Of a stretch of DNA of 19,651 nt, positions 1 to 18,470 are shown one piece after another. The DNA is from Zoogloeaceae bacterium (GTDB taxonomy: Bacteria > Pseudomonadota > Gammaproteobacteria > Burkholderiales > Rhodocyclaceae): positions 1 through 19,651 of the forward strand of contig JAISSL010000108.1 of assembly GCA_031273145.1 (NCBI GenBank), read 5' to 3'. Position 1 is the stretch's first letter. Every line of letters begins with the position of its first letter. The position numbers and the translations under genes are program-made. The notes beneath the pieces were generated by a model. The model was not told the origin of the DNA and ran no database searches. It was given only the letters and a program-made list of their open reading frames with translations.

Positions 1-641
1 AAAAACATCGAAAAAATGAGCCAGGCCGGGACGTTTTGCTGTACGGATGAAGGCACTGCGGCAGCGACGGTTCCATCGTCATGACTGCTGACGGATTCAA
101 TTGCGATTTCCGGCAAGCCGACGCGCTCCGTGACTTCGCGCAGTTCCGGCAGCATCATGTTTTGCCCAAACTGTTCAAGCGCCTGCGTAAGCCACACCTT
201 GCTGGCCGCCATTTCGACGTACTGATGGAAACTGCTGCGTACCATGCCCGGAACGGCAGGATCGATCAGAAAACGCAGGACGGGAGTCTGGTTCGTGTCG
301 ATCTGCCGGGCGAACCCTTCAGGAATCACGACGACGAACGCCATTTCTTCGGCGCGCACCCGCAGGCGGGCATCCGCCTCATCGGATGGAGGCGTGGATT
401 TTTTGAGCAGTTCGATGTTGCCCAACAGCGCATCAAGCGCGCGGGAGGCCGGGGTGTTATCGAGATCCAGCACCGCATAAGCAATGGTGGCTTCCTGTTT
501 TTCTGGAAGCGCATCCGCAAGCGTGAGCGACATAATCAGGATGAACGCCGCAGGCATGATAAAGAGCGCAGCCAACCCATGCCGGTCGCGGATCAGCGCC
601 AGCCCTTCCTTTTTCCACAGCGCGAGAAGTTGGATCAGCAT
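1..641 (-). CDS. ABC-2 type transporter permease, N-terminal part (runs off the left edge)
   Basis: The minus-strand frame from ATG at 641 to the window edge has no stop and encodes about 213 residues, so the 3' part is missing. A hydrophobic segment lies near residues 24-42 (GLAALFIMPAAFILIM). A soluble, presumably extracytoplasmic domain of about 160 residues follows, and a second hydrophobic stretch (PAWLIFSMFF) begins at the edge. An N-terminal anchor, a large external loop and then a membrane bundle is the layout of ABC-2 permeases of the YhhJ/ABC2_membrane_3 type. The ATG is 7 nt after the stop of the ATPase gene, so the two should form one exporter. The substrate is unknown; the context with a ketosynthase and an acyltransferase suggests a lipid-like product (inference). 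Confidence 0.85.
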   Translation of the reverse strand, partial: MLIQLLALWKKEGLALIRDRHGLAALFIMPAAFILIMSLTLADALPEKQEATIAYAVLDLDNTPASRALDALLGNIELLKKSTPPSDEADARLRVRAEEMAFVVVIPEGFARQIDTNQTPVLRFLIDPAVPGMVRSSFHQYVEMAASKVWLTQALEQFGQNMMLPELREVTERVGLPEIAIESVSSHDDGTVAAAVPSSVQQNVPAWLIFSMF

Positions 642-648
642 GTCGGAA

Positions 649-1374
649 TCAGTCTCTCAGCGAATACCCGGTGAGTTCCACGAAAACCTGTTCCAGCGTT
701 CTGCCTTGCTTGACTTCCGCAATGGGGCCTGCCAACAGTACTTTGCCGTGGTCGATGATCGAGGCATCGGAGCATATCGCTTCCACCTCTTCCATGTAAT
801 GACTGGTGTAGAGCACGGTACGTCCGGCTGCGGCGAATTGCCGGATGATTTCGAGCAGAAAGCGGCGCGAGGAGGGGTCGACGCCCACGGTTGGCTCATC
901 GAGCAAAAGAATCTCCGGCTCGCCGGTGAGTCCGATCGCCAGATTCAGCCGTCGCCGCAGCCCGCCGGAGAGTTCTTCCGCGCGTTGCTTGGCGACGGTT
1001 TCGAGGCGGGAAAAAGCCAGTGCTTCGGCACACCGGCGTTGCCGCTCCTGCTGAGGAACCCCCTGTACCCCGGCGAAGAAGTCCAGATTTTCGGCCACGG
1101 TCAGCATCGGGTAGAAAGCATAATCCTGCGGAACCAAGGCAATGGCATTGGGGCGCACAGCCCGCCAGACATCGAGCGATTCGCCGTCGATGACGATGCG
1201 CCCTTTCTGGGGCGTGAGCAAGCCGGCCAGAAGTGAAATCAGCGTGGTCTTGCCCGCGCCGTTCGGGCCGAGCAGACCGTGGATGCTGCCGCGCGCGATG
1301 TCGATCGAAATGCCATCAAGCGCCGGAGGCGTTTCAGGGCGATAGCGATAGTGGAGGCTGTCAATGCGAATCAT
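649..1374 (-). CDS. ABC transporter ATP-binding protein
   Basis: A 241-residue cytoplasmic ATPase that should power the adjacent ABC-2 permease. All motifs are visible: Walker A GPNGAGKTT at about 36-44, Q-loop Gln83, signature LSGGL at 135-139, Walker B LLLDE at 156-160 and switch His192 (TSHYMEE). The sequence resembles the CcmA/DrrA-like exporter ATPases. The frame stays open upstream to about 1824, but the ABC domain begins at MIRIDSLHYRY and that ATG overlaps the stop of the BtrH-like gene as ATGA, so I place the start at 1374. The overlap implies translational coupling. The transported molecule cannot be read from the ATPase. Confidence 0.93.
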   Translation of the reverse strand: MIRIDSLHYRYRPETPPALDGISIDIARGSIHGLLGPNGAGKTTLISLLAGLLTPQKGRIVIDGESLDVWRAVRPNAIALVPQDYAFYPMLTVAENLDFFAGVQGVPQQERQRRCAEALAFSRLETVAKQRAEELSGGLRRRLNLAIGLTGEPEILLLDEPTVGVDPSSRRFLLEIIRQFAAAGRTVLYTSHYMEEVEAICSDASIIDHGKVLLAGPIAEVKQGRTLEQVFVELTGYSLRD

Positions 1375-2381
1375 GAACGGCGCACGGCTTTCTCCAGCGA
1401 AGTGAAGAACGTCTTTTCGCGCGCCGCTTGCGCGCGCAGCAGGGTTGCGAGATGGGCCGGGTCGAGCGGGTCGCGGTCGCGGATCATGCGCGCGGTAGCA
1501 AGCGCAAATTCGCGCCAGAGATCGCCGATTTCGACCAGTTGCGCAGCCAGTTCGGCAAGCGCCGGACGAGCCATGCGCGTGGCCGCTTCTTCCAGAAAGG
1601 CTGCGTACATGAAGCGAAACCCTCCGCCGCCGGTTCCGATTTCTTCCTGCATCCGTATCAGATGTCCGATGTAGAGCTTGGTGGCTTGCGGGTTGGCAGC
1701 GGCAGGCAGGCGCTCGAACGCGCGCGCAACCCGGTTGATCCCTCTGACGCCGATGAACGGCAATGGGGTACGGAGCATGTTTCGCGTCGTTTTTTTGATG
1801 GCGGCAGGAATCGCCTGTTCCCATGCCGGCTCCTGCGGCGCGTGGGCAGGGTAATACAACAGCCCCTTTGGCGCGAGCAGGCCGCGGGCAAAACGCGCTT
1901 TCGCCAGATCAGCGGACGCGCACCGCACCGGCTCTTCCAGCACGGGATCGGAGAGCAGGTAATCTCCGCTCGCTTCGTCACGCCCAAAGGCCAACAGATT
2001 ATGGGCGTTGAAGTGAAAGCGAAAATCCGGCGGCATGAACGGCAGCCAGAATACGGAAGCCTGCAAGCCCACGACTTGCCCGGCGTCAAGCAGTTGATCG
2101 AGCCGCGCCATGCCATCTTCCGGGCGGCGGAATGTTTCGGTGCGCATCGAAAAGCGGAGCGGTTTTTGCAGGCCGCGTAAAATCGTCCTGGGCGGCATCC
2201 GGTAAGAGACCAGCGGCTGACCGGAAATTTTGATGAAAGGCAAAAAGGCGAACGTCAGCGCCGAAGACAGACCGAACGCCATCGGCTCGGAAAACGGCAA
2301 ACCGTAATGACGCACGATGGCGCTCATGACCCCGCTTTCGCAATGGGATGCCTGTTGGTGGACGAAAGAGGTCGTTGCCAT
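1371..2381 (-). CDS. BtrH-like (butirosin acyltransferase-type) cysteine acyltransferase/peptidase
   Basis: A 336-residue protein whose N-terminus matches the BtrH N-terminal domain. It shows the motif HQQASHCESG with candidate nucleophile Cys14, then SEPMAFGLSS, a His in NAHNLLAFG (about His127) and an Asp in LLSDP (about Asp145), giving a papain-like Cys-His-Asp triad. BtrH itself moves an acyl group from an acyl carrier protein onto the aminoglycoside ribostamycin, so an acyl-transfer role on a carrier-bound product is plausible (inference). The C-terminal half is helical and unrecognised. The ATG at 2381 lies one base after the stop of the upstream gene; the frame is open further up to 2798, but that part overlaps the HTH-like gene and lacks family features. 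The 3' end overlaps the ABC ATPase start by 4 nt. Substrate unknown. Confidence 0.82.
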   Translation of the reverse strand: MATTSFVHQQASHCESGVMSAIVRHYGLPFSEPMAFGLSSALTFAFLPFIKISGQPLVSYRMPPRTILRGLQKPLRFSMRTETFRRPEDGMARLDQLLDAGQVVGLQASVFWLPFMPPDFRFHFNAHNLLAFGRDEASGDYLLSDPVLEEPVRCASADLAKARFARGLLAPKGLLYYPAHAPQEPAWEQAIPAAIKKTTRNMLRTPLPFIGVRGINRVARAFERLPAAANPQATKLYIGHLIRMQEEIGTGGGGFRFMYAAFLEEAATRMARPALAELAAQLVEIGDLWREFALATARMIRDRDPLDPAHLATLLRAQAAREKTFFTSLEKAVRRS

Positions 2382-2382
2382 T

Positions 2383-2778
2383 TCAGTCGATGACATCCAG
2401 CTGATCGGGTTCGATGCCCAGAACCTGGGCGTAACGCGCGCGCAATGCCTTTGAAAGACGGGCGAACACCGCCGGGCGGAGGTGGCGGCGCACCTGCCAG
2501 CGCCAGAGTCCGCTTGCCTGCGCCAGCACGGAGACATCCATGCGAGCGCGATACATGTGGACTTCCAGCGGAGCACTTTGTCCGGCGCGCACACGCTCAA
2601 GCGCGGCGGCGGCCAATTCCTCGAAGGCCAGCACCGCCTGCCGGGTAACGGTCTCCTCGACTTCCCATCCGCGTGACTGCACGAGCACGAGCCGTCCATC
2701 GGGGTTGCGCGCATACATGGCCTTGAGATGACCGCCGTAGGTGGCGCTGCCTTCCTGGGGAACGTCGGTGGTGTCCAT
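2383..2778 (-). CDS. Small protein with a helix-turn-helix-like C-terminus, function unknown
   Basis: A 131-residue soluble protein that I do not recognise as a named family. Residues about 78-121 (ARMDVSVLAQASGLWRWQVR, then RRHLRP, FARLSKALRARYAQVLGI) look like an XRE-type helix-turn-helix: a 'x-LAQASGL-xx-xxVRRHL' helix pair followed by an L-x-x-YA-x-VLGI helix. The N-terminal half (GRLVLVQSRGWEVEET) is predicted mixed alpha/beta. The gene sits 16 nt after the ketosynthase stop and ends one base before the BtrH-like ATG, so it belongs to the same transcript. It could be a local regulator or a structural partner of BtrH; the sequence does not decide. The start at 2778 is preceded by a purine-rich stretch, with no perfect ribosome binding site. 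Confidence 0.72.
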   Translation of the reverse strand: MDTTDVPQEGSATYGGHLKAMYARNPDGRLVLVQSRGWEVEETVTRQAVLAFEELAAAALERVRAGQSAPLEVHMYRARMDVSVLAQASGLWRWQVRRHLRPAVFARLSKALRARYAQVLGIEPDQLDVID

Positions 2779-2794
2779 TCCTGATCGCCTCGCC

Positions 2795-3943
2795 TCAAAC
2801 GACCGTCATGTGCATGAGTCCGCTCGAAAAGCGTCCGCTCTCAGGCACGTAGCACAGCAGACGCTCACCCGGCGCAAGACGCCCGCTGCGACGCAACTCG
2901 TCCACCATGACGTAGAGTGATGCCGAACCGATGTTGCCCTTGGTTGCCAGATTCGTAAACCAACGCTCGAACGGGACAGGTAATCCTGCCCGCGCCAGTC
3001 CGTCGGCAATGGGCTGGCGGAAGTAATACGACGACATGTGCGGCAGGAACCAGTCGATTGCTTCTGCCTTGAGTTTGTGCCGCGTGACGAGGGCAGCCAA
3101 AGGCGTTTCCAGGGTCGCTTCGATCACATGGCGATCCAGCAGTTTCACATCCTGCTTGAGCGCGAAAATGGATTTTTCCGCCCATTGGTCGGACGGGAAC
3201 TGCGCCCAACCGATCAGCCTACCATCGGCATCGCGGTCGCTGCCCATATACATGCACGCGGGCAGCCGGTGCGCGGCGGAAGAAAGCGCAATCCAGTCGA
3301 TGCGGAAATTGACCTGTCCGGCACGCGGGCGAGGTTCGATGAGAAAAGCGCCCGCGCCATCGGAGAGCATCCAGCGTAGAAAATCTTTCTCGAACGCGAT
3401 GTTGGGCTGCGCGTTGAGATCCGCGACGCGGGCGGCGCTTTCTGCGGAGAAGTATTCTGCCCGCATCACTGCGGAGGCCAGTTCGGAACCGGTTGCCACT
3501 GCGTTTTCCGCCTCTTTCCCCTTGACCGCAAGCCAGGCGTATTTGAGGGCGGAAAGCCCCGACAGACAAACCCCGGCGGTTGAAACAACCTCGCAGGCAG
3601 GATTGCCCAGTTCGCCATGAACCATGACACCATGATTGGGCACGATCTGGTCGGGTCTGGATGTTCCGGTGACGAGGCATTCGAGACGGTCGAGCGCAAA
3701 ACCGCTGTCCTCTGCGAGGGCGCGAACCGCCTCGGCAGTGAGGCTGGCGTTGGTATGCGTGGGCAATCCGCTTGCCGGGTCAATCGCGTAATGGCGGTTT
3801 TTGATGCCGTTCTGGCGCAGGACGATGGCGCGCGCGCGCGAGGGCTTGCCCCCAATCCAGCCAAGAATGGCTTCGATGGATTCGTTATCGACCGGCGAGT
3901 TGGGCAAGACCGCAGCCGTGGCGGTGATGAAGGCTTCACTCAT
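2795..3943 (-). CDS. Beta-ketoacyl-ACP synthase III (FabH/DarB-like)
   Basis: A 382-residue thiolase-fold ketosynthase. The catalytic triad of KAS III enzymes is in place: Cys126 in STAGVCLSGL, His302 in FLPHMSSYYF and Asn337 in TKGNIGSASLY. Known relatives condense an acyl starter with malonyl-ACP (FabH) or two beta-keto acyl chains (DarB of the dialkylresorcinol pathway). It is longer than housekeeping FabH (about 317 residues), and no fatty-acid synthesis genes are adjacent, so a specialised product is more likely than bulk fatty acid. Its ATG overlaps the end of the flavodoxin-like gene by 8 nt, a pairing reminiscent of darA-darB. The acyl carrier protein it would need is not in the window. 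Confidence 0.88.
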   Translation of the reverse strand: MSEAFITATAAVLPNSPVDNESIEAILGWIGGKPSRARAIVLRQNGIKNRHYAIDPASGLPTHTNASLTAEAVRALAEDSGFALDRLECLVTGTSRPDQIVPNHGVMVHGELGNPACEVVSTAGVCLSGLSALKYAWLAVKGKEAENAVATGSELASAVMRAEYFSAESAARVADLNAQPNIAFEKDFLRWMLSDGAGAFLIEPRPRAGQVNFRIDWIALSSAAHRLPACMYMGSDRDADGRLIGWAQFPSDQWAEKSIFALKQDVKLLDRHVIEATLETPLAALVTRHKLKAEAIDWFLPHMSSYYFRQPIADGLARAGLPVPFERWFTNLATKGNIGSASLYVMVDELRRSGRLAPGERLLCYVPESGRFSSGLMHMTVV

Positions 3944-4874
3944 GGATCATGCGCGTAGCATCCGCGCCCGAAGGTTGTTCATAATGACGAATGATCGCTG
4001 CGGCGCGGCGGGCAAGCAACGGCGCGGCCAACCGCTGTAAAACGAAATTGATCGGCACGACGGTCAGGATGATGACAATAAGATAGATGATGAACAGTAT
4101 GAGCGCCGGAATCCGCCGCCATTGCCCGGCACACCCGCACAGGCGGACGAGCTTCGACCATACCCGGAAGGCACGATGGGCGATGCGTTCGGACATGGCC
4201 AGATGGGGCGTGACTTTGACCGCGCACAGGCCGCTCAACATGGGTTGCCCGGTTTTTTCTGCGTCGCGGGCGAGTGCCTCGGCCAGCGCCTCGCCGAATC
4301 TCGCCGTCCCCGCTGTCTGTTGAGCCGTGATCCCGGCGGGCGGCAAACCGAGAAAACGGTTACGCCGACCGGTCAACATCCAGCGCGGCGTAGTGATGAA
4401 AGTCACCAACGCCGGGGACTCATCAATCAATGCCACATGGTCGACAAGCCGCCCACCTGCTTCCGCAACCAGCGTTTTCAGCGTATCGAATGCGCTGAAC
4501 CACATATTGCGACAGGCCACCAGACTAACAACGGGTTTGCCCGCGAGCAGGCGCTTTCCTTCGGCACTTTGCAGAAAAGCGGTTATGGGCTGCGATGGGG
4601 AGAGATACCAGACCGTCCAGGCAAGGATGACCAGATCGAACCTCACATCGGTCGGGATCGCAAGAGGCTTGTTGGGACGCGGGTCGAGGCACACCGACTC
4701 CGGGAAAGCATCGAAAAAAGTGAAAAACGGCCAGGGAAACGGAAAGGCCGGATCTGACCGCAGCACTTCATGATGAACCCCGATCCCCCCCGTTTCCAGC
4801 GGACGCGCCAAGGCGGCAACAATGCCAGCAAGCTGACCGCTCTGAGAGTAGGAAATGACAAGAATGTTTTTCAT
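3936..4874 (-). CDS. Flavodoxin-fold protein with C-terminal membrane anchor, DarA-like
   Basis: A 312-residue protein. The N-terminus (MKNILVISYSQSGQ) is a beta strand followed by a flavodoxin phosphate-binding loop, and LVILAWTVWYLSP near 81-93 resembles the flavin-stacking loop, so an FMN-dependent oxidoreductase is likely. Near residues 256-279 there is a strongly hydrophobic helix (ALILFIIYLIVIILTVV), which should fix the protein to the inner membrane. Proteins of this kind next to a ketosynthase III are annotated as dialkylresorcinol condensing/aromatising enzymes (DarA), which suggests oxidative tailoring of the ketosynthase product; this is an inference from context. The start at 4874 is preferred because an upstream GTG adds five residues before the conserved strand. 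It appears to be the first gene of the left-hand operon, after a 181-nt gap; I could not identify a convincing promoter. Confidence 0.75.
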   Translation of the reverse strand: MKNILVISYSQSGQLAGIVAALARPLETGGIGVHHEVLRSDPAFPFPWPFFTFFDAFPESVCLDPRPNKPLAIPTDVRFDLVILAWTVWYLSPSQPITAFLQSAEGKRLLAGKPVVSLVACRNMWFSAFDTLKTLVAEAGGRLVDHVALIDESPALVTFITTPRWMLTGRRNRFLGLPPAGITAQQTAGTARFGEALAEALARDAEKTGQPMLSGLCAVKVTPHLAMSERIAHRAFRVWSKLVRLCGCAGQWRRIPALILFIIYLIVIILTVVPINFVLQRLAAPLLARRAAAIIRHYEQPSGADATRMIHE

Positions 4875-5020
4875 CAATGGTATCCGCACGGGGGATGAAT
4901 TCTAACATTTTCTTTCATTCTGAATCCCCACGACCTGAAATATCAAGTACAAGTTTTTTCAATTTGCATTGGAAATACGAAGGAGATTGCGCCGATTTGT
5001 CCAAGAAGGACGCAGCGTAA

Positions 5021-5058
5021 TGAAGCGCGGCGTTTCGTCAGGATAGGAAGGCGCTTCA
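5021..5058. repeat. 8-bp perfect inverted repeat at the 3' end of nadB
   Basis: The arms TGAAGCGC (5021-5028) and GCGCTTCA (5051-5058) are perfect reverse complements around 22 nt, and one arm covers the nadB stop. No T-run follows, so it is a poor intrinsic terminator; it may be a weak transcript-end hairpin or chance. The rest of the 181-nt gap (4875-5055) is AT-rich, with no other structure I can support. Confidence 0.3.
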
Positions 5059-6630
5059 CCTTTTCAAAACCGTGTTTTTGGCCTTGGGCAACAGGGCAGG
5101 GTAGTCCCGTGAAAAATGCAGTCCTCGGCTTTCTTTCCGGCGCAGGGCAGAACGGACGATCAGCTCGGCATTGACGACCAGATTCCTCAGTTCAATCAAA
5201 TCATGGTTGACCCGGTGATTGGCATAGAAATCGTCAATCTCGCGGCGCAGCACGCGGATGCGGGAGAGTGCGCGTCGCAAGCGGTGCGTCGTGCGGACAA
5301 TGCCCACATAATCCCACATCAGGCGGCGCAATTCGTCCCAGTCATGCGCGATCGTGATGGTTTCGCTGGCTTCCGTGACGCGGCTTTCATCCCATTTCGG
5401 CAGGACAGGGAAGGGCGGGGGCAGGGGCGTTTGCGCCAACATGGCTTCTGCCGCAGACTTGGCGAAAACCAGACATTCGAGCAGGGAGTTGGAAGCCAGC
5501 CGGTTTGCGCCGTGCAGGCCGGAACAGGAAGATTCGCCAATCGCGTAAAGCCCAGGCAGGTCGGTACGTCCTGCCAGATCAATGAGAACGCCGCCGCAGG
5601 TGTAATGCGCGGCAGGCACGACCGGAATCGGCGCGACCGTGATGTCAATCCCCAGACTCAAGCAATGGGCATGGATATTAGGAAAATGCTCAAGAATAAA
5701 ATCCTTGCCCTTGTGGGAAATATTGAGGAAGACGCAATCCAATCCCCGTTTTTTCATTTCAAAATCAATGGCGCGCGCGACGACATCGCGGGGCGCCAAT
5801 TCGGCGCGCGCATCGTGCGCCGGCATGAAGCGGCTGCCATCCGGCAACTGCAAAATTCCCCCTTCGCCCCGGACGGCTTCGGAAATCAGGAACGATTTTT
5901 CCGACGGATGGTAGAGGCAGGTCGGATGAAACTGGATGAATTCCATGTTCGCTACCCGGCATCCAGCCCGCCAGGCCATTGCAATGCCATCTCCGGTGGA
6001 AGTGTCGGGATTGGTTGTATACAGATAGACCTTGCCTGCGCCGCCCGTCGCCAACAGGGTCTGGGAGGCGCTTATCGTATGGATTTCCCCGCTCGCGTCG
6101 TCAAGCACGTACGCGCCATAGCAGCGGTTTTCCGGCAACCCCAGTTTTTTGCCGGTAATCAGTTCAATGGCGATATGGTTTTCCCGGATTTCGATGCCCG
6201 GATGTTGGCGCAGAAGCCTTGATAGCGTCTCCTGAACGGCTAACCCGGTTGCGTCCGCAACATGGATAATGCGACGGGCGCTGTGTCCGCCTTCGCGGGT
6301 CAGGTGATAGCCCAGATGATCCTTGGTAAAGGGAACACCCTGTTCAATCAGCCATTCAATCGCCGCCCGGCTGTTTTCCACCACAAAGCGGGTTGCGCGT
6401 GGGTCGTTCAGATAAGCGCCCGCGACAAGCGTATCCTGAATATGCGCTTCTATGGAATCCTGGCTATCCAGCACGGCAGCAATGCCGCCCTGGGCGCGGG
6501 AAGACGCGGTTTCTTCCAGAATTCGCTTGCTGATCAGCAAAACACGCGCGCCCTTATCCGCCAGACGCAACGCAGTGGACTGTCCCGCCAGTCCGCTGCC
6601 GATAATCAGAACGTCATACTCAGGTTTCAC
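5056..6630 (-). CDS. nadB: L-aspartate oxidase
   Basis: A 524-residue FAD enzyme that oxidises L-aspartate to iminoaspartate in the cytoplasm, the first step of de novo NAD synthesis; NadA then makes quinolinate. Visible features are the FAD-binding GSGLAG at 11-16, [12 protein letters not shown] at 43-54, the active-site region [12 protein letters not shown], the loop RGEGGIL, and AAHYTCGGV with [15 protein letters not shown] in the FAD/capping region. The length is close to the E. coli enzyme (540). The start is GTG at 6630, supported by a good Shine-Dalgarno (CGGAGG) 6-7 nt upstream. It begins 18 nt after the symporter stop, so the two are probably co-transcribed. nadA and nadC are not in the window. 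Succinate dehydrogenase and fumarate reductase flavoproteins are related, but the SSRAQGG segment and length fit NadB. Confidence 0.95.
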
Positions 6631-8989: not shown

Positions 8990-9718
8990 CTACGCGCTTT
9001 TGAGCGCGGTCATGGCGATTAACGCGATTTGGTTTTCCGTGTCCGCCTCCAAAAACTCCACGTCATTAAAACCAAGATGTTCTTTCTCCCAATGCGCCCA
9101 GGGATACCAAATGGCTTTCGGGTCGGGAATATCGTAGCAAGACGTAATTTCCGCGATTCCGGTTTTTTCCCAGAGATTGCGCCACCATCCGGCGCTGTGG
9201 AAGGAACACAGTTCTCCTTCTGCCGCCTGCCAAAATGATTTCATGGTTTCGGGATAGCCCTTCTGGAATTCCTGAACCAGTCCGGGAACGACGATTCCCA
9301 ATTGACCGCCCGGTTTCACGAGCTTGGCGAAGGTGCAGGGAAAATACAGTTCATCCGCGCCGTAGTAGTGGTAGCTGTCAATCGAAATCGCCGCGTCAAA
9401 GAAGCCTTTGGCGTAGGGAAGGGCATGAGCCTCCGCGTGGATGGGGAACACCCTGTCGGACACGCCTGCCGCTTCAAACCTTTGCAGGTTTTCGGTTGCG
9501 TCAATCCATAGGTCGTTTGCGAAGACGGTTACACCGAACTCTTTCGCAAGAAAAACGGAAGTCAAACCCTTTCAGCAACCCATGTCCAAAACCCTCATGC
9601 CGGGTGAGAGCTTCATGTTGCCGCATAACTCTTCCAGCAGGTAAAGCGGGTTTGGCCCCATCCAGTTTTCTTCAATCCACTTCGGGTCGTACTTTTTGGT
9701 TGTCGGATATTCATTCAT
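8990..9718 (-). pseudogene. SAM-dependent methyltransferase interrupted by an in-frame TGA
   Basis: Read from ATG at 9718 (Shine-Dalgarno AGAGGA 8 nt upstream), the frame encodes a class I methyltransferase. Codon 49 (9574-9572) is TGA. It falls inside the SAM-binding motif I, which reads VLDMGC-stop-KGLTSVFLAKEFG; relatives have glycine there (D-x-G-C-G-K). A single G-to-T change of GGA gives TGA. Downstream the frame is intact for 193 residues, with NDLWIDA, SIDSYHYYG and LVKPGGQLGIVVPG as motifs II-IV. No plausible restart with its own ribosome binding site follows the stop, and a restart would omit motif I. So the gene is probably inactive, unless the base is a sequencing error or the stop is read through. 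Selenocysteine is unlikely because the aligned residue is Gly. Confidence 0.8.
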
Positions 9719-9773
9719 GGGATATTCCTCTGGCACCAACCAGGCGGGGAAGGTGGCGCAGTGCTCTCAAGAA

Positions 9774-9802
9774 AAAGCGTTGACCAGGCGGGTTGACGCT
9801 TT
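9774..9802 (-). terminator. Possible intrinsic terminator downstream of the DUF1640-like gene
   Basis: On the minus strand AAAGCGT (9802-9796) pairs with ACGCTTT (9780-9774) around a 15-nt loop, and the T's run on as TTTTTCTT. It lies between the DUF1640-like gene and the methyltransferase. The stem is short and the loop long, so this is a weak candidate. Confidence 0.35.
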
Positions 9803-9841
9803 GCGTGGGGCACGGGGTAGCAAAAGCCTTGCAGTGTGTGG

Positions 9842-9872
9842 GATGTGAGGAAGTGAAGATGTGAGGAAGTGG
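9842..9872. repeat. Short direct repeat, period 16
   Basis: GATGTGAGGAAGTG occurs at 9842-9855 and again at 9858-9871, directly beside the terminator hairpin. No coding role is apparent; it is probably a small slippage duplication. Confidence 0.6.
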
Positions 9873-9904
9873 AAAGGCCGGGTCTGGAAAACCCGGCCTT
9901 TTTT
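9873..9904. terminator. Strong GC-rich hairpin with T-run, likely bidirectional terminator
   Basis: The arms AAAGGCCGGGT (9873-9883) and ACCCGGCCTTT (9891-9901) pair perfectly around the 7-nt loop CTGGAAA. On the plus strand six T's follow (9899-9904), and on the minus strand three T's extend the stem. It touches the stop codon of the DUF1640-like gene (minus strand), so it probably ends that transcript. Its better T-run points the other way, although no plus-strand gene precedes it. Confidence 0.75.
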
Positions 9905-10151
9905 ATGGGCTAATCATTTTTACGATTGCGGCGGCAAGCCCTGCGGCGGCAAAGACAGTGCCTATATTCCATCTGATGATTCGTAACTCTGCATCTTGAA
10001 TCATGACTTTGATGTCATTTCTGGTTGCAATGTCTGAACTATTGAATGCTTGCTTCATTGCGTCCGATAAGCCCTCGGCTTGGTCTTTCTTGAATCCTTT
10101 AGCCTCAAGGGTTTTGACGAATTCGAGCGTGTCAAAAGTGGTTGCGGTCAT
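9903..10151 (-). CDS. DUF1640/CCDC90-like small coiled-coil membrane protein
   Basis: An 82-residue protein that starts TATTFDTLEFVKTLEAKGFK, the usual opening of DUF1640-like proteins. An amphipathic helical middle follows (QAEGLSDAMKQAF, then DIATRNDIKVMIQDAELRI), and a single C-terminal membrane helix ends it (IGTVFAAAGLAAAIVKMI). The family has coiled-coil, membrane-anchored members distantly related to the mitochondrial MCUR1/CCDC90 proteins; the bacterial function is unknown. I chose ATG 10151 because GGGGG lies 6 nt upstream; the frame opens with TTG at 10208, which has no such site. The 3' end sits on a strong terminator. Base composition is AT-richer than the flanking operons, as for the lipoprotein gene upstream. 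Confidence 0.75.
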   Translation of the reverse strand: MTATTFDTLEFVKTLEAKGFKKDQAEGLSDAMKQAFNSSDIATRNDIKVMIQDAELRIIRWNIGTVFAAAGLAAAIVKMISP

Positions 10152-10195
10152 GATGTACCCCCGGTTGTTTGATGGTGGAAGTTTGCCATTATTGG

Positions 10196-10213
10196 CCTGA
10201 TTGGTCAATCAGG
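10196..10213. repeat. 18-nt palindrome at the lipoprotein stop codon
   Basis: CCTGATTG-GT-CAATCAGG is a perfect palindrome apart from its two central bases, and it covers the stop codon of the small lipoprotein gene. It could be a hairpin limiting read-through into the DUF1640-like gene or an operator-like site; no T-run follows. Confidence 0.45.
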
Positions 10214-10595
10214 GCGCGGCATCGGTTGCCATGCTGCATTTCTTCTCTTCCATAGCTCTAAAGGCAACGGCGCGGCTATTGTGTAAGCTGGCGATAGCAT
10301 CATCATTGCTACTGTTTACGCTTTTGCTACCTCGTGTCGTAAACCTGAAAAAGAGGAATTTAACCTCTGTCTCGGTTGTCCGGTCTTGTTCAATCTGGTT
10401 ATTCGCTTTGCGTAACTCTGCTTCTTGCTTGTCGAATTCGACAATTTCGGCGGCAATTTGTGAACAGGTGTGATTGTAGTATTTGAAATGTGCGGATTCG
10501 CTAGGGTTGTAGGTGGTTTTTTCCGGCGCGGCGGATTTGTTTGAACAGGCAAAAAGTGCAAGCGCGGCAAGGGAAAGCAGGGCGGTTCTTCTCAT
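10209..10595 (-). CDS. Small hypothetical lipoprotein
   Basis: A 128-residue protein with a lipoprotein signal: MRRTALLSLAALALFAC, positively charged start, hydrophobic core and lipobox LFAC with Cys17 as the lipid-modified residue. The mature part is charged and helical (IAAEIVEFDKQEAELRKANN), suggesting a short coiled coil, and two further cysteines occur in HTCSQ and KKCSM. I do not recognise a family. The start at 10595 has GGAG 6 nt upstream; ATG codons further up lie before the signal peptide and are less likely. A sigma-70-like promoter stands just upstream. It is 57 nt ahead of the DUF1640-like gene, so the two may share a transcript. Confidence 0.7.
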   Translation of the reverse strand: MRRTALLSLAALALFACSNKSAAPEKTTYNPSESAHFKYYNHTCSQIAAEIVEFDKQEAELRKANNQIEQDRTTETEVKFLFFRFTTRGSKSVNSSNDDAIASLHNSRAVAFRAMEEKKCSMATDAAP

Positions 10596-10620
10596 GATGA
10601 ACTCCATGTGGGAATGAATG

Positions 10621-10656
10621 GATGCAAATAATATCAAAAACCCTACTGCTTTACAA
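10621..10656 (-). promoter_or_regulatory. Sigma-70-like promoter for the small lipoprotein gene
   Basis: On the minus strand TTGTAA (10656-10651, 4 of 6 to consensus) and TATTAT (10633-10628, 5 of 6) are separated by exactly 17 nt. Transcription would start around 10620, about 25 nt before the start codon at 10595. The surrounding gap (10596-10864) is AT-rich and otherwise holds a tandem 8-bp repeat (GGAAACTG twice, 10845-10860) and a weak ACACC/GGTGT hairpin near 10821-10836. Confidence 0.55.
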
Positions 10657-10864
10657 TCTGTTACAAACTATACCAATGTCGCAAACCCGCATAAATGCAG
10701 GGTATAGGCAAAATCTATCAGGACTAACTACCTTCATAACAATATAGATGCTACCGGGCTTGTCTTTTTGAAATTTTACATAATACAAATTATGCGAAAT
10801 AGCCAATCACTGAATAGGCGACACCAAGTCAGGTGTTTCAGATTGGAAACTGGGAAACTGGTAT

Positions 10865-11368
10865 TCAGCGCAACATCTTTCCGGCTACACCCTGAAAGTC
10901 GCTTTTTTTGAACACTCCGTATTTACGCAACACGACTTCGCCCTTGCGATTGATGAGCAAGGTAAATGGCAGGAGACCTTTTTCATTGCCAAGCGTCTGC
11001 ATCAGGGATGCCCCCTGATTGCCAGCAAGCGCAGCGGGATAATTCACGCCATAAGCGGCAAGGAATTCACGTACCTTGACTGGGTCTTCTTCCAGCGCGA
11101 TGCCAAGTACGATCAGTCCCTGCTTTTTATATTTCTTTCCCAACAGGGTAAGTTCCGGGAACTCGTCACGGCAAGGGACACACCAGCGCGCCCAGAACTG
11201 GACGATGAGCGGTTTGCCCCGAAAACTGGAAAGCGGCATCGGCGCACCATGAACATCCATCATCGTGGCGGAAAAAAGCGCATCCACCCCCTCTTCTTCC
11301 GCCCTCGCCGTGACGGTGAGCAGGACAAACCCCAAAAGCGCGCCCGCCAAAACTTTTACCACCTTCAC
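10865..11368 (-). CDS. TlpA/ResA-like thioredoxin-fold protein of the nos operon
   Basis: A 167-residue periplasmic or membrane-tethered thiol oxidoreductase. It has an N-terminal signal/anchor (VLAGALLGFVLLTVTARA), then the thioredoxin fold with the redox motif WCVPC (Cys63, Cys66) in VQFWARWCVPCRDEFPEL, and a cis-Pro segment LLPFTLLINRKG. TlpA-type proteins reduce cysteines in copper-site or cytochrome c maturation. As the last gene after nosY, a role in keeping NosZ CuA or NosL thiols reduced, or in haem attachment to the operon's cytochromes, is a reasonable inference. It starts with GTG that overlaps the nosY stop (GTGA), with GGGGAG upstream, so translation is coupled. The operon appears to end here. 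Confidence 0.9.
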   Translation of the reverse strand: MKVVKVLAGALLGFVLLTVTARAEEEGVDALFSATMMDVHGAPMPLSSFRGKPLIVQFWARWCVPCRDEFPELTLLGKKYKKQGLIVLGIALEEDPVKVREFLAAYGVNYPAALAGNQGASLMQTLGNEKGLLPFTLLINRKGEVVLRKYGVFKKSDFQGVAGKMLR

Positions 11369-13504: not shown

Positions 13505-14476
13505 TCAAAGCAGTTTCGACAAGCCCTTGACCTCAAAGCGCAACGCGCCGGTCGGGCAGGCATCCACGCACAGGCCGCAGCGCGTACAGTCGGGGCCAAG
13601 CCCCATCTCTGCCACGGGGGCGCGTCCCTTGATCGTCACGTCAAGCACATGCGGCACCAGGCAGACCTTATGGCAATCTCCTTCATGAAAACAGGGTTCG
13701 ACATGGTAACTGATCTGTAATGGGGAAATCGTTCCCACCACGCCATAGGTGAGGCCAATCGGGCAGACGTAGCGGCACCATGCGCGACGCGACCAGAACA
13801 CCTCAAAGAGCAGCAACAAAAACACCCAGGCCAGCGCGAGTCCCGGTCCATAAATCAACGCGCGTGACAGGATGCCGACCGGAGAGAGCGTCTCGAAAAC
13901 CGTATAACCAGTCAAAAACGCCAGCGCGACAAACAAGACCCAGAACACGGTACGCGCCCCCCGGTGGAATTCGTGGTCGGTCACGAGCTTCTTTCGCGCG
14001 AGCGCAAGATGGATTTTTTCCGTGAGTTCGGAGACCAGATGATACGGACACACCCAGGAACAGAAGCTGCGCCCGCCCAGCAGCACCCAGAGCAGGAAAA
14101 TCGTGAGCGTGCCGATGACGAGGTTCACGATGAGGTGCTTATGCGCCAGCATCACCTGGAGCGCGGCGTTGAGGTCAATCAGGTGAAACCCCACGAAGCG
14201 CGAGGCCGTGAGCGATCCTTCGAGTATCTGGATGTCCAGCCAGAAAGAAAACATGAACAGCAGGTTGACCGCCACGAGCACCGCCCAGCGCCGGTTGCGC
14301 CAGGCGTGGCGCGGTTGCCGATGCGCCTGATCGTGCAAGTGCGCCTTGATGCGGGATTTATCTTCCCGCTTGATTTCCATGATTCGACGCACTTCTGCGG
14401 AGATTTGCGCCGGATGTTCCGGTTTTTTCGGTTCCATCCCCAACATGCAGAAGAAATTTTCAACTAAGCGGCGCAT
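13505..14476 (-). CDS. nosH: Membrane iron-sulfur protein NosH (NapH-like)
   Basis: A 323-residue inner-membrane protein thought to pass electrons from the quinol pool towards the periplasm with NosG. It has four or more membrane helices, two CxxxCP motifs at the membrane face (GGRSFCSWVCP, Cys139/Cys143; RAWCRYVCP, Cys234/Cys238), a cluster Cys262/Cys268/Cys272, and a C-terminal 4Fe-4S motif CTRCGLCVDACP (297-307). This is the NapH/NosH/CcoG-like layout. The chosen ATG (14476) is one base after the nosG stop with GGGGAGG upstream; a GTG three codons earlier is less likely. Confidence 0.92.
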   Translation of the reverse strand: MRRLVENFFCMLGMEPKKPEHPAQISAEVRRIMEIKREDKSRIKAHLHDQAHRQPRHAWRNRRWAVLVAVNLLFMFSFWLDIQILEGSLTASRFVGFHLIDLNAALQVMLAHKHLIVNLVIGTLTIFLLWVLLGGRSFCSWVCPYHLVSELTEKIHLALARKKLVTDHEFHRGARTVFWVLFVALAFLTGYTVFETLSPVGILSRALIYGPGLALAWVFLLLLFEVFWSRRAWCRYVCPIGLTYGVVGTISPLQISYHVEPCFHEGDCHKVCLVPHVLDVTIKGRAPVAEMGLGPDCTRCGLCVDACPTGALRFEVKGLSKLL

Positions 14477-14477
14477 T

Positions 14478-15353
14478 TCAGGCACCCTCCCCGTTCATTT
14501 CCCAGACCGCACGTGATTCAATCTCAATGGCGGGGAATTCCAAAGGACAGATCATCTCGCAGACGCCGCAGCCCACACACTGTTCACGCGCCACGGGACG
14601 GAAGCGTTGGTTGCCATCGGCATCGGTAAAAGGTTCCAGCGCGATGGCATCCTCAATCGGGCACTCCGTCACGCACAGATCGCAGAGTTCGCGTTCATAA
14701 GGATGGTCAATGACCGGGATAGGCTTCCAGCGGTCGACTTCCATGTAACGCATTCGTCCCTTGAATGTTGTCTCGCGGGCAGACCCGGAAAACCCTTTGC
14801 CCTGCACTGCCAGACAGGCTTCCGGGCGGGTCAGCCGCGCCAGCCCCATGCGTTCCTTAAGATTGAGGGCTGGTTCCGGTTCGCCCGCTCTAGCCTTGAG
14901 TATCGGCAAACTGGAGAGTCCAGCCCCTTCGCGTACCGGGAAAAAACCGGGTTTCGTGTAGGTCAACGCGCCGGTCGGGCACGCAAGAATATACTGCACC
15001 GCGTCGCAGGAAAAATCGCACGCCTGCTCACGCGCCGTAATATAGGGCACGCCGATGCCAACTCCTTCGTCAAGGTCGCCCAGCCGGATTGCGCTGACCG
15101 GACAAACCTGCACACATTGACCGCACTTGATGCAGGAAGCGAGAAAATCCTTTTCGTCAAGCGCCCCCGGCGGACGCAACCGTTTTACACCCGCCTGCAA
15201 AACGGGCAGGATGCCCGCGAGCGACGCCCCAATTATTCCGGCCAACAGCATGACTGAACGGATGAACTTGCGCCGTGCGCGACGCCCCTTCTCTGCCGAT
15301 ATGACCGGCTTTGCGCGTGGCGTTGCCGGGTTTTTCGACTCCGGGGCGCTCAT
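14478..15353 (-). CDS. nosG: Periplasmic ferredoxin-type protein NosG (NapG-like)
   Basis: A 291-residue iron-sulfur protein with a Tat-type signal: RRKFIRS at about 27-33, then a hydrophobic run to about residue 55. Cysteine motifs for up to four 4Fe-4S clusters follow: CIKCGQCVQVCP (74-84), CDFSC with CP at 125, CDLCVTECP (224-231) and CVGCGVCEMICP (259-269). NapG and NosG are exported folded and relay electrons from the NapH/NosH membrane partner. Its start overlaps the nosD stop as ATGA and its stop is one base before nosH. NapG is the closest alternative name, but the nos context settles it. Confidence 0.93.
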   Translation of the reverse strand: MSAPESKNPATPRAKPVISAEKGRRARRKFIRSVMLLAGIIGASLAGILPVLQAGVKRLRPPGALDEKDFLASCIKCGQCVQVCPVSAIRLGDLDEGVGIGVPYITAREQACDFSCDAVQYILACPTGALTYTKPGFFPVREGAGLSSLPILKARAGEPEPALNLKERMGLARLTRPEACLAVQGKGFSGSARETTFKGRMRYMEVDRWKPIPVIDHPYERELCDLCVTECPIEDAIALEPFTDADGNQRFRPVAREQCVGCGVCEMICPLEFPAIEIESRAVWEMNGEGA

Positions 15354-16750
15354 GACGCATTCTCCTGCCGGGTTTTCTCGAAGCGCGGTTTTTGATCTCG
15401 CAAAATGAGATCGGGCGAGGAAAAGGGCGCGAGCCGTTCCAGAAAATCAAGCAGTTCCAGCACCGGCGAAGCGCGGAAAAAACTCGCCATCGGGAATTCC
15501 ATCCAGATGCGATCCGCCCAGGCGTAAGCCTCGTGCGGCGTATCGCCGAACCCGTCGCCGTTGCTATCGAACCCCTGATAGGTATCCCAATAGTTGCCTT
15601 CCCAGAAATTCTTGTCTGGATTTTCGCTGCGTCCGCCATAACTCACATCCGTCAGATTGCCCTCGAAAACGTTGCCGCGCAGGTTGTTACCGCCCGTCTC
15701 CGAATTGAACAGAACGGCGACGCCATTGTAGGCAAAGCGGTTGCCGGTAATTTCGATGCTCGAATCCGGCTCGAACGGCGAGAGATCGGACCCCACGCCG
15801 ACGCCGCAATAAATAATCTCGTTATTTTCGATGACCGTGTCCGAGGCTTCCTTGAAACCGATACCCATGCCTGTAGCCCCGGTCGCATGTGAGATGAGGT
15901 TGCCACGCGCCGCACCGCCGTGGGTATACATGAAGTACACGCCCACGGCGTTATCCCTGAAGTGGTTGTTCTCGACGAGGTTGTCGTCCGCAAACATGAA
16001 ATGCAGGGAATAGCGGCTGCCCTGCCCCATGTTGCCGCGAAACACGTTGCGGTGCGAATACCAGGCCACCATGTCGCGCGAATCAACCACTTCGTTCCCT
16101 TCGATCAGGTTGTCGTTGCTGTACCACAGGCGCAGACCATCGCCCCGCACGCCGAGATCAACCGGCTTGGAACGGATATGGTTACGGCGCACGACGTTAT
16201 GGGAAGACTGCTTCAAATCAATACCGAACAGGCAATTGTCGAGCGTCAGGTCTTCGATCACGTTGCGGTTTCCGCGCACATCGAGACAGGCGTCATCCGT
16301 ATCGTGCGATGTCCCGGAACCGGTCAGGCGCAGTCCGCGCACGCTGGAATCGCTCGCATTGAGCGCCATTACCGTGCCCTTATCGCCTGCGTCAATGGTA
16401 ACTGCCCCGCCGCCTTCGATAATGAGCGGTTTGTCGACATTGACCGGCCCGGCGTAGATACCCGGCGGCGGGCGCAGCGTGGAACCGGGCGCGGCGGCAT
16501 CCACGAGCGCCTGAAACGGTTGCAATCCATGAATGCGCGCATCGCGCTCGAAAAGCATCCAGACCGGCTTCGGGCGGTCAATGGTCACACGCGGCGCGTC
16601 TCCGTTCCCGTAATAGCTGTTGCTGGCATTGTCTCCGAATGAAGTCACCTGCCCTACTCCCCCCAGCGGGAACAGAAACGTCAGGCACACAAGCGCAATT
16701 GCGGCGCAAAAACGCATGAATGGTTTGAGGGCGTTGATCCGGTCTTTCAT
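15350..16750 (-). CDS. nosD: NosD, periplasmic right-handed beta-helix protein
   Basis: A 466-residue exported protein: a signal segment (residues about 8-33, ending GGVGQ), then CASH/beta-helix repeats in which N-x-I/L-x-x-N patterns recur (VIEDLTLDNC, NVVRRNHI, NLIEGNEV, NVFRGNMG, NLVENNHF, NEIIYCG, NRFAYNG). A conserved C-terminal part follows (NFWEGNYWDTYQGFD, then FGDTPHEAY). NosD works with NosF and NosY to mature the CuZ centre of NosZ. The start overlaps the nosB stop as ATGA. The length fits the family (about 420-470). Confidence 0.95.
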   Translation of the reverse strand: MKDRINALKPFMRFCAAIALVCLTFLFPLGGVGQVTSFGDNASNSYYGNGDAPRVTIDRPKPVWMLFERDARIHGLQPFQALVDAAAPGSTLRPPPGIYAGPVNVDKPLIIEGGGAVTIDAGDKGTVMALNASDSSVRGLRLTGSGTSHDTDDACLDVRGNRNVIEDLTLDNCLFGIDLKQSSHNVVRRNHIRSKPVDLGVRGDGLRLWYSNDNLIEGNEVVDSRDMVAWYSHRNVFRGNMGQGSRYSLHFMFADDNLVENNHFRDNAVGVYFMYTHGGAARGNLISHATGATGMGIGFKEASDTVIENNEIIYCGVGVGSDLSPFEPDSSIEITGNRFAYNGVAVLFNSETGGNNLRGNVFEGNLTDVSYGGRSENPDKNFWEGNYWDTYQGFDSNGDGFGDTPHEAYAWADRIWMEFPMASFFRASPVLELLDFLERLAPFSSPDLILRDQKPRFEKTRQENAS

Positions 16751-17726: not shown

Positions 17727-18470
17727 CTATTTTTTGCTGGCTTTTGCTTCGCACATCGCGCCGGGCATTTTCAGACTCGCCTGATATGCCGAAATCGCCA
17801 CCAGCATGTCATCGGTGTAAGGCTTGATGATCCGCACCATGTCCAGATTGGCGTTGCGACGGTGCCCGTCGCGGATTTCCGTCATCTGGCGCAGCAGGTA
17901 TTTGTAGTGCTGTCCGGCAATGACCGGGTAGAACTTTGCCTTGTCGCCTTCGCCATTTTTGCCGTGACACTCCAGGCATTGTTTTTCGTAGAGTTCCTTC
18001 CCCTTTACGATTTGCAGCGCCGCGTCCGTCCCTTCGTACTTGCCGTGGTCAGGGGGAATGCACAGGCTCTCGATATAAATGGACACGTCGGCGAGTTCCT
18101 GCGGATCGGTCAAGGTCACGGCAAAGGGATACATGGTCGGGTTATCGCGCAAGCCTGCGCGGATGTCGGCCATCTGCTTGATGAGTACCGTCGTGTGCTG
18201 GCCCGCAAGCTGCGGAAACGTGCCATCCGGTCGCCCTGCCCCGGAAGGCAGATGACAGGCGCCGCATATTTCGTAGGCTTCCTCGCCGTTTTCCCTGTTG
18301 CCTTTCAGCTTGAGCGCCTCGTTTTTTTCGCCTTCCTGAGCGTTCCAGGAGTAATCCCTGCTTTCGATTCCCGCCGCCTTCGGAGCCGGAGGCGCGGCGA
18401 AAGACAGGCTCATCGCCACAACTCCCACCGTTCCCAGCAAGAGCATTGATAAAAGTGATGTTTTTTTCAT
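17727..18470 (-). CDS. Di-heme cytochrome c (c4-like), NosC-type
   Basis: A 247-residue periplasmic cytochrome. The signal peptide is cleaved near SLSFAAP. Two haem motifs, CGACH (69-73) and CLECH (165-169), sit in two similar halves; Met113 (NPTMYPF) and Met211 (NLDMVR) are the likely sixth ligands. Both halves carry AGQH plus a QM-x-x-IR-G helix, so the protein is an internal duplication of a mono-haem unit, as in cytochrome c4. It probably passes electrons to NosZ. In Wolinella the two nosC products are mono-haem, so this is not an exact counterpart. GGAGG 9 nt before the ATG marks the start; it follows the mono-haem gene by 19 nt. Confidence 0.9.
   Translation of the reverse strand: MKKTSLLSMLLLGTVGVVAMSLSFAAPPAPKAAGIESRDYSWNAQEGEKNEALKLKGNRENGEEAYEICGACHLPSGAGRPDGTFPQLAGQHTTVLIKQMADIRAGLRDNPTMYPFAVTLTDPQELADVSIYIESLCIPPDHGKYEGTDAALQIVKGKELYEKQCLECHGKNGEGDKAKFYPVIAGQHYKYLLRQMTEIRDGHRRNANLDMVRIIKPYTDDMLVAISAYQASLKMPGAMCEAKASKK

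What the first reader, a model, noticed from the sequence alone, without database searches (positions are those of the whole stretch)
1..4874. Compact, little-described operon: flavodoxin-like, ketosynthase III, HTH-like, BtrH-like acyltransferase and ABC exporter
Six genes lie head to tail with overlaps or gaps of at most 16 nt. Seen directly: KAS III triad residues, a Cys-His-Asp BtrH triad, flavodoxin loop plus membrane anchor, and a complete ABC ATPase. Known: DarA/DarB make dialkylresorcinols, BtrH transfers acyl groups from a carrier protein. Inference: the operon builds a polyketide- or fatty acid-derived molecule, transfers it to an acceptor and exports it or inserts it in the envelope. 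I know of no described product for this combination.
Basis: partly seen in the sequence, partly recalled or inferred. Interest (0 to 1): 0.72.

Follow-up and report, generated by a model that had tools for sequence, protein, structure and literature searches.

The report
Known dialkylresorcinol pigment (dar) operon
These six genes are an ordinary copy of a published bacterial gene set that makes a ring-shaped lipid, which a related bacterium joins to a yellow pigment.

Summary
The six head-to-tail genes are darA, darB, darD, darE, darF and the start of darI of the dialkylresorcinol (dar) operon. The same genes, in the same relative order, were published in 2014 for Azoarcus sp. BH72 (PMC3949708), whose resorcinol is part of the yellow aryl-polyene pigment arcuflavin. 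NCBIfam has models for the DarB family, DarD (named 'DarG') and DarE (named 'DarH', BtrH-related acyltransferase). The window is a whole contig of an 86%-complete draft genome and ends inside darI; the relative L025 shows the expected rest (permease, carrier protein, second ketosynthase, DarK). Of 369 genomes sampled from the class, the 18 with DarE over cut-off all have DarB, and 20 of 21 with DarB over cut-off carry a polyene ketosynthase marker; the exception is this incomplete genome. Most likely DarB makes a cyclohexanedione, DarA (flavodoxin fold) aromatises it, DarE esterifies it with the polyene acid, and DarF/DarI transport. The DarE and transport roles are inferred. DarD is predicted to hold a Cro/XRE-type helix-turn-helix fold. 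Low interest: already known, with one small open step, who makes the ester.

The parts
3936..4874 (-). darA, 312 aa: dialkylresorcinol condensing enzyme / aromatase, flavodoxin-like domain plus C-terminal helices with a hydrophobic stretch
   Evidence: Many of the 120 listed homologues are named 'dialkylresorcinol condensing enzyme' (others 'hypothetical protein' or unnamed). AlphaFold model pLDDT 93.7 from 36 sequences; best Foldseek match WrbA 7q6m_B, E 7.6e-7, only the N-terminal domain aligns well. No Pfam or NCBIfam match.
2795..3943 (-). darB, 382 aa: StlD/DarB family ketosynthase, Cys126-His302-Asn337
   Evidence: NF005293 567 bits, cut-off 450; the narrower DarB model NF053539 476 bits, below its cut-off 550; solved StlD 5gk0 E 4.6e-134; triad 81 of 81.
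2383..2778 (-). darD of BH72 (NCBIfam 'DarG family'), 131 aa, predicted two strands, long helix and Cro/XRE-type HTH
1371..2381 (-). darE of BH72 (NCBIfam 'DarH'), 336 aa: BtrH-related acyltransferase, conserved Cys-His-Asp
   Evidence: NF053550 459.5 bits, cut-off 300; Pfam BtrH_N and DUF4872; C15, H128, D146 in 69 of 69, numbered on a translation with one residue before the ATG.
649..1374 (-). darF, 241 aa: ABC transporter ATP-binding protein
   Evidence: PF00005 5.4e-33; best NCBIfam match drrA TIGR01188, 212 bits, below its cut-off 312.
3..641 (-). darI, first 213 aa: ABC-2 permease, cut by the contig end
   Evidence: PF12698 35.1 bits, cut-off 31.6; 77% DNA identity to the permease gene of L025.
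4917..4946 (-). possible promoter upstream of darA (consensus match only)
   Evidence: TTGATA, 18 nt, CAGAAT, 9 of 12; one of two such matches in 4700-5200, shuffles give 0.2 on average.

Best explanation
This is the dialkylresorcinol (dar) operon of a draft genome whose nearest matches are Azoarcus/Zoogloeaceae-type Betaproteobacteria, orthologous to the arcuflavin dar operon of Azoarcus sp. BH72. DarB joins two fatty-acid-derived acyl chains into a cyclohexanedione; DarA, a flavodoxin-fold protein, aromatises it to a 2,5-dialkylresorcinol (DarAB product published for homologues; FMN use is my inference). DarC (ACP) and DarJ (ketosynthase), not in this contig but present in relatives, probably supply a chain. 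DarE, a BtrH-like Cys acyltransferase, most likely moves the finished aryl-polyene acyl group from a carrier protein onto a phenol of the resorcinol (inferred, about 0.6 on its own). DarF/DarI most likely move the pigment or a precursor towards the envelope (inferred). DarD is a small HTH-fold protein, regulator or assembly factor (undetermined). The confidence below is for the identity of the operon and its product class.
For: Same genes in the same relative order as BH72 Table 1, whose strain makes arcuflavin. NCBIfam matches over cut-off for DarB family, DarD and DarE. Heterologous DarAB of Chitinophaga pinensis make a dialkylresorcinol, and a darB mutant of Flavobacterium johnsoniae is flexirubin-negative (PMC3992019, passages). 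L025 continues with permease, ACP, ketosynthase and DarK. In 369 genomes of the class: DarE over cut-off in 18, all 18 with DarB over cut-off (Fisher p 8e-28); polyene marker PF13723 in 20 of 21 DarB genomes and 17 of 18 DarE genomes against 86 of 369 overall (p 6e-13 and 7e-11). DarB loci without DarE exist: 3 of 21 genomes in the sample, and L057, L066, L075, L081 (Pseudomonas x2, Brenneria, Burkholderia), where no DarE was found genome-wide; none of these seven shows a DarD in the DNA held. In 7 of the 17 genomes with DarE and marker, marker and DarB lie within 30 kb on one contig; in the 3 without DarE they lie on different contigs, as they also do in the other 10.
Against: No polyene gene was found in this genome itself: PF13723, 7 kb of polyene-cluster DNA from L115 and its exporter gave nothing, nor DarC, DarJ or DarK; at 86% completeness this is inconclusive. 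The 3 DarB genomes without DarE, and 3 of the 4 isolates with DarE-less loci, also carry PF13723, so DarE does not simply track the marker. The narrower DarB model is not reached (476 of 550 bits). For flexirubin the published guess for the coupling enzyme is another protein, FlxW. Fisher tests ignore relatedness. No test of DarE, DarF/I or DarD was seen in the passages and listings.
Confidence: 0.93

Rival explanations
1. The operon makes a free dialkylresorcinol (signal or antibiotic, as DarAB loci in Pseudomonas chlororaphis and Photorhabdus do), exported by DarF/DarI and not joined to a polyene.
For: No polyene genes found in this genome. Pseudomonas chlororaphis makes 2-hexyl-5-propyl resorcinol with dar genes (listing and abstract start of PMC6403133; Photorhabdus recalled).
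Against: Seven DarB loci or genomes without DarE also show no DarD in the DNA held, while this operon has both; 20 of 21 DarB genomes of the class and 10 of 11 close-relative genomes searched carry the polyene marker.
Confidence: 0.07
2. DarE is not the ester-forming enzyme but trims or transfers acyl chains during resorcinol assembly (BH72 Table 1 calls it 'BtrH-like peptidase'), and another protein joins the polyene. This concerns one step and does not exclude the best explanation's identity of the operon.
For: The flexirubin paper proposes the ligase-like FlxW for the coupling; DarE-less genomes with DarB and a polyene marker exist.
Against: NCBIfam names DarE a BtrH-related acyltransferase; heterologous DarAB suffice for the resorcinol of flexirubin (PMC3992019, passage); C, H and D are invariant in 69 of 69.
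Confidence: 0.3

Closest known systems
dar operon of Azoarcus sp. BH72 (azo0283-azo0293), strain makes arcuflavin (PMC3949708)
   Same: Same genes in the same relative order (darA, B, D, E, F, I here; C, J, K in L025); DarA 62% identical to an Azoarcus olearius homologue (that BH72 is A. olearius is recalled)
   Different: BH72 has darG/darH (prevent-host-death and PilT) between F and I; here F and I are 7 nt apart. Polyene genes not found in this incomplete genome.
Flexirubin clusters of Bacteroidetes (Chitinophaga pinensis, Flavobacterium johnsoniae; PMC3992019)
   Same: DarA/DarB plus an aryl polyene joined as an ester (passages); DarD matches the flexirubin DarG model at 105 bits
   Different: Below that model's cut-off of 170; the flexirubin ring is tyrosine-derived, that of arcuflavin comes from 3-hydroxybenzoate.
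StlD ketosynthase (solved structures 5gk0, 5gk1, 5gk2)
   Same: Full-length match of DarB, E 4.6e-134
   Different: StlD works in stilbene synthesis (recalled).
BtrH (butirosin biosynthesis)
   Same: BtrH_N domain
   Different: DarE also matches DUF4872 at its C-terminus; BtrH itself transfers to an aminoglycoside (recalled).

Membership tests
dar (dialkylresorcinol) operon | DarB-family ketosynthase with the C-H-N triad | tested here: met
   NF005293 567 bits over cut-off 450; C126, H302, N337 in 81 of 81. The narrower model NF053539 scores 476, below its 550.
dar (dialkylresorcinol) operon | DarA next to DarB | tested here: met
   8-nt overlap; homologues named dialkylresorcinol condensing enzyme; a DarA hit in 77 of 80 DarB loci.
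arcuflavin-type dar operon (BH72) | darD, darE, darF, darI after darAB | tested here: met
   darI only in part
arcuflavin-type dar operon (BH72) | darC (ACP), darJ (ketosynthase), darK | tested here: inconclusive
   Contig ends inside darI; not found elsewhere in the 86%-complete genome; ACP and ketosynthase present in L025.
arcuflavin-type pigment pathway | polyene (arc) genes in the genome | tested here: inconclusive
   None found in own genome; PF13723 in 10 of 11 close-relative genomes searched.
arcuflavin-type pigment pathway | resorcinol-polyene ester made | not testable with these tools
   Needs extracts and mass spectrometry.
BtrH-related acyltransferase (NF053550) | score over curated cut-off | tested here: met
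   459.5 bits, cut-off 300
dialkylresorcinol DarB (NF053539) | score over curated cut-off | tested here: not met
   476 bits, cut-off 550; the broader StlD/DarB family NF005293 is met.
flexirubin DarG (NF053545) | score over curated cut-off | tested here: not met
   105 bits, cut-off 170; the broader DarG family NF053536 is met.
Cro/XRE-type HTH fold (DarD) | structural match of the modelled domain | tested here: inconclusive

The most novel reading that the evidence does not exclude
In this lineage the dar operon works without an aryl polyene: DarE esterifies the dialkylresorcinol with another acyl group (for example a fatty acid), and DarF/DarI place that colourless lipid in the envelope.
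Probability: 0.06. Interest if true: 0.45.

Novelty: already known. Interest (0 to 1): 0.12.

Why it matters
It settles that the operon is a published pigment module and not an undescribed pathway. What remains testable is small: which enzyme makes the resorcinol-polyene ester (DarE here, FlxW proposed for flexirubin), and what the HTH-fold protein DarD does. The distribution data give a simple argument for testing DarE and DarD first.

Full report
What is there. On the minus strand of window 1-4874 lie six genes with gaps or overlaps from -8 to +16 nt and no internal stops: darA (312 aa), darB (382), darD (131), darE (336), darF (241) and the first 213 aa of darI, cut by the contig end. The window is a whole contig, C237, of a 1.98-Mb draft genome of 294 contigs, 86.28% complete, so nothing to the left can be read from this contig. 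Upstream of darA is nadB (L-aspartate oxidase), on the same strand; L025 has other genes upstream of darA (metG and dnaE, on the opposite strand), so nadB is not part of the unit.

Identification. NCBIfam names DarB (StlD/DarB family, 567 bits, cut-off 450), DarD (as 'DarG family', 155 bits, cut-off 70) and DarE (as 'BtrH-related acyltransferase DarH', 459.5 bits, cut-off 300). The narrower DarB model NF053539 is not reached (476 of 550 bits). DarA has no Pfam or NCBIfam match, but many of its 120 listed homologues (3144 in all) are named dialkylresorcinol condensing enzyme, with organism names such as Betaproteobacteria, Azoarcus and Zoogloeaceae; many others carry no name. DarF has the ABC ATPase domain and DarI an ABC-2 membrane domain.

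Published counterpart. PMC3949708 (parts 1-3 of 5 read, plus passages) lists for Azoarcus sp. BH72, azo0293 down to azo0283: darA, darB, darD, darE (BtrH-like peptidase), darF (ABC ATP-binding), darG (prevent-host-death), darH (PilT), darI (ABC permease), darC (ACP), darJ (ketosynthase), darK. The window has the same order without the PHD/PilT pair. The paper reports that heterologous dar proteins make a dialkylresorcinol, that the pigment arcuflavin (C41H52O4) holds it together with a xanthomonadin-like polyene, and predicts an ester link. Its mutants were in polyene genes arcK and arcT, not in dar genes. In PMC3992019 (passages) a darB mutant of Flavobacterium johnsoniae is cited as flexirubin-negative.

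The missing left part. In L025 (87% DarB identity, MAG Th196P3bin67) darA-darB-darD-darE-darF is followed by a 400-aa permease, an acyl carrier protein, a 363-aa ketosynthase-like protein and a 168-aa protein without family match, which I equate with DarK by position. In the window's genome the DNA of this part matches the contig end inside darI and, besides that, only short repeats.

Conservation. Of 145 DarB relatives found in genome contigs the best 80 were kept. By tblastn, 77 hold a DarA hit, 76 DarD, 73 DarE, 65 DarF, 59 DarI, 59 DarC, 57 DarJ and 38 DarK somewhere in the locus; many loci are cut by contig ends. The set reaches beyond Betaproteobacteria (records titled Gammaproteobacteria, Opitutia, Planctomycetota). 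Four loci have neither DarD nor DarE: L057 and L075 (Pseudomonas), L066 (Brenneria, which shows no DarA hit either) and L081 (Burkholderia); no DarE was found in those four genomes. L037, L039 and L040 have darA-darB-darD without darE downstream; DarE lies elsewhere in the genomes of L037 and L040 and was not found in that of L039.

Co-occurrence. In 369 genomes drawn from the class, with the same handles in three searches, DarE over cut-off is in 18 (21 with weaker matches), DarB over cut-off in 21 (346 match at E up to 0.001, nearly all as distant ketosynthases) and the polyene ketosynthase marker PF13723 in 86. All 18 DarE genomes have DarB. Of the 21 DarB genomes 20 carry the marker; the exception is the window's own. 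The three DarB genomes without DarE (G104, G198, G221) do carry the marker, against a simple rule 'DarE equals polyene partner'; their short DarB loci (about 1.5 kb on each side) show DarA but no DarD. In 7 of the 17 genomes with DarE and marker the two lie within 30 kb on one contig (G071, G072, G155, G252, G288, G347, G358); in the other 10, and in the three without DarE, they lie on different contigs, which in drafts does not exclude nearness. In the genome of L025 the marker is about 21 kb from darB, taking G369:C7 and WRMF01000007.1 (both 87,677 bases) as the same contig. Beside it lie genes that resemble acyltransferase, two AMP-ligases, glycosyltransferase, thioesterase, LolA2 of flexirubin loci and an HpnN-type exporter, all by matches below the curated cut-offs. 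PF13723 also covers other aryl-polyene types (recalled), so it marks a polyene pathway in general.

Polyene genes in this genome. PF13723 was not found (the control Bacteroides ihuae rang), nor 7 kb of the L115 cluster, nor its exporter (both without a positive control). Among 11 close-relative genomes searched, 10 carry PF13723. I read the absence as incompleteness, without proof.

Verdict. A well-observed but already published operon. Interest 0.12.

Noticed in passing
window 13505-16750 (-): NapH-like and NosD genes (over cut-off) and a NapG-like gene (below cut-off): part of a nitrous oxide reductase accessory cluster, with a weak cytochrome-c match at 17727-18470; unrelated to dar.
   Followed up: no
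L025 about 16487-16602; own genome contigs C132, C126, C46, C21, C163, C236: Two stretches of about 46 nt recur at several places in the window's genome, at some of them on both strands, as a dispersed palindromic (REP-like) repeat would.
   Followed up: no
L037, L039, L040: The dar operon is split in these three Azoarcus MAGs: darA-darB-darD without the rest downstream; DarE lies elsewhere in two of the three genomes.
   Followed up: partly
window 1371-2778 (-): Name clash: NCBIfam 'DarG' and 'DarH' are BH72 DarD and DarE, while BH72 darG/darH are a prevent-host-death/PilT pair.
   Followed up: yes
window 9001-11000: A stretch of lower G+C (0.526 and 0.448 per kb); its open frames were not scanned; no Rfam family or tRNA, only short repeats.
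   Followed up: partly
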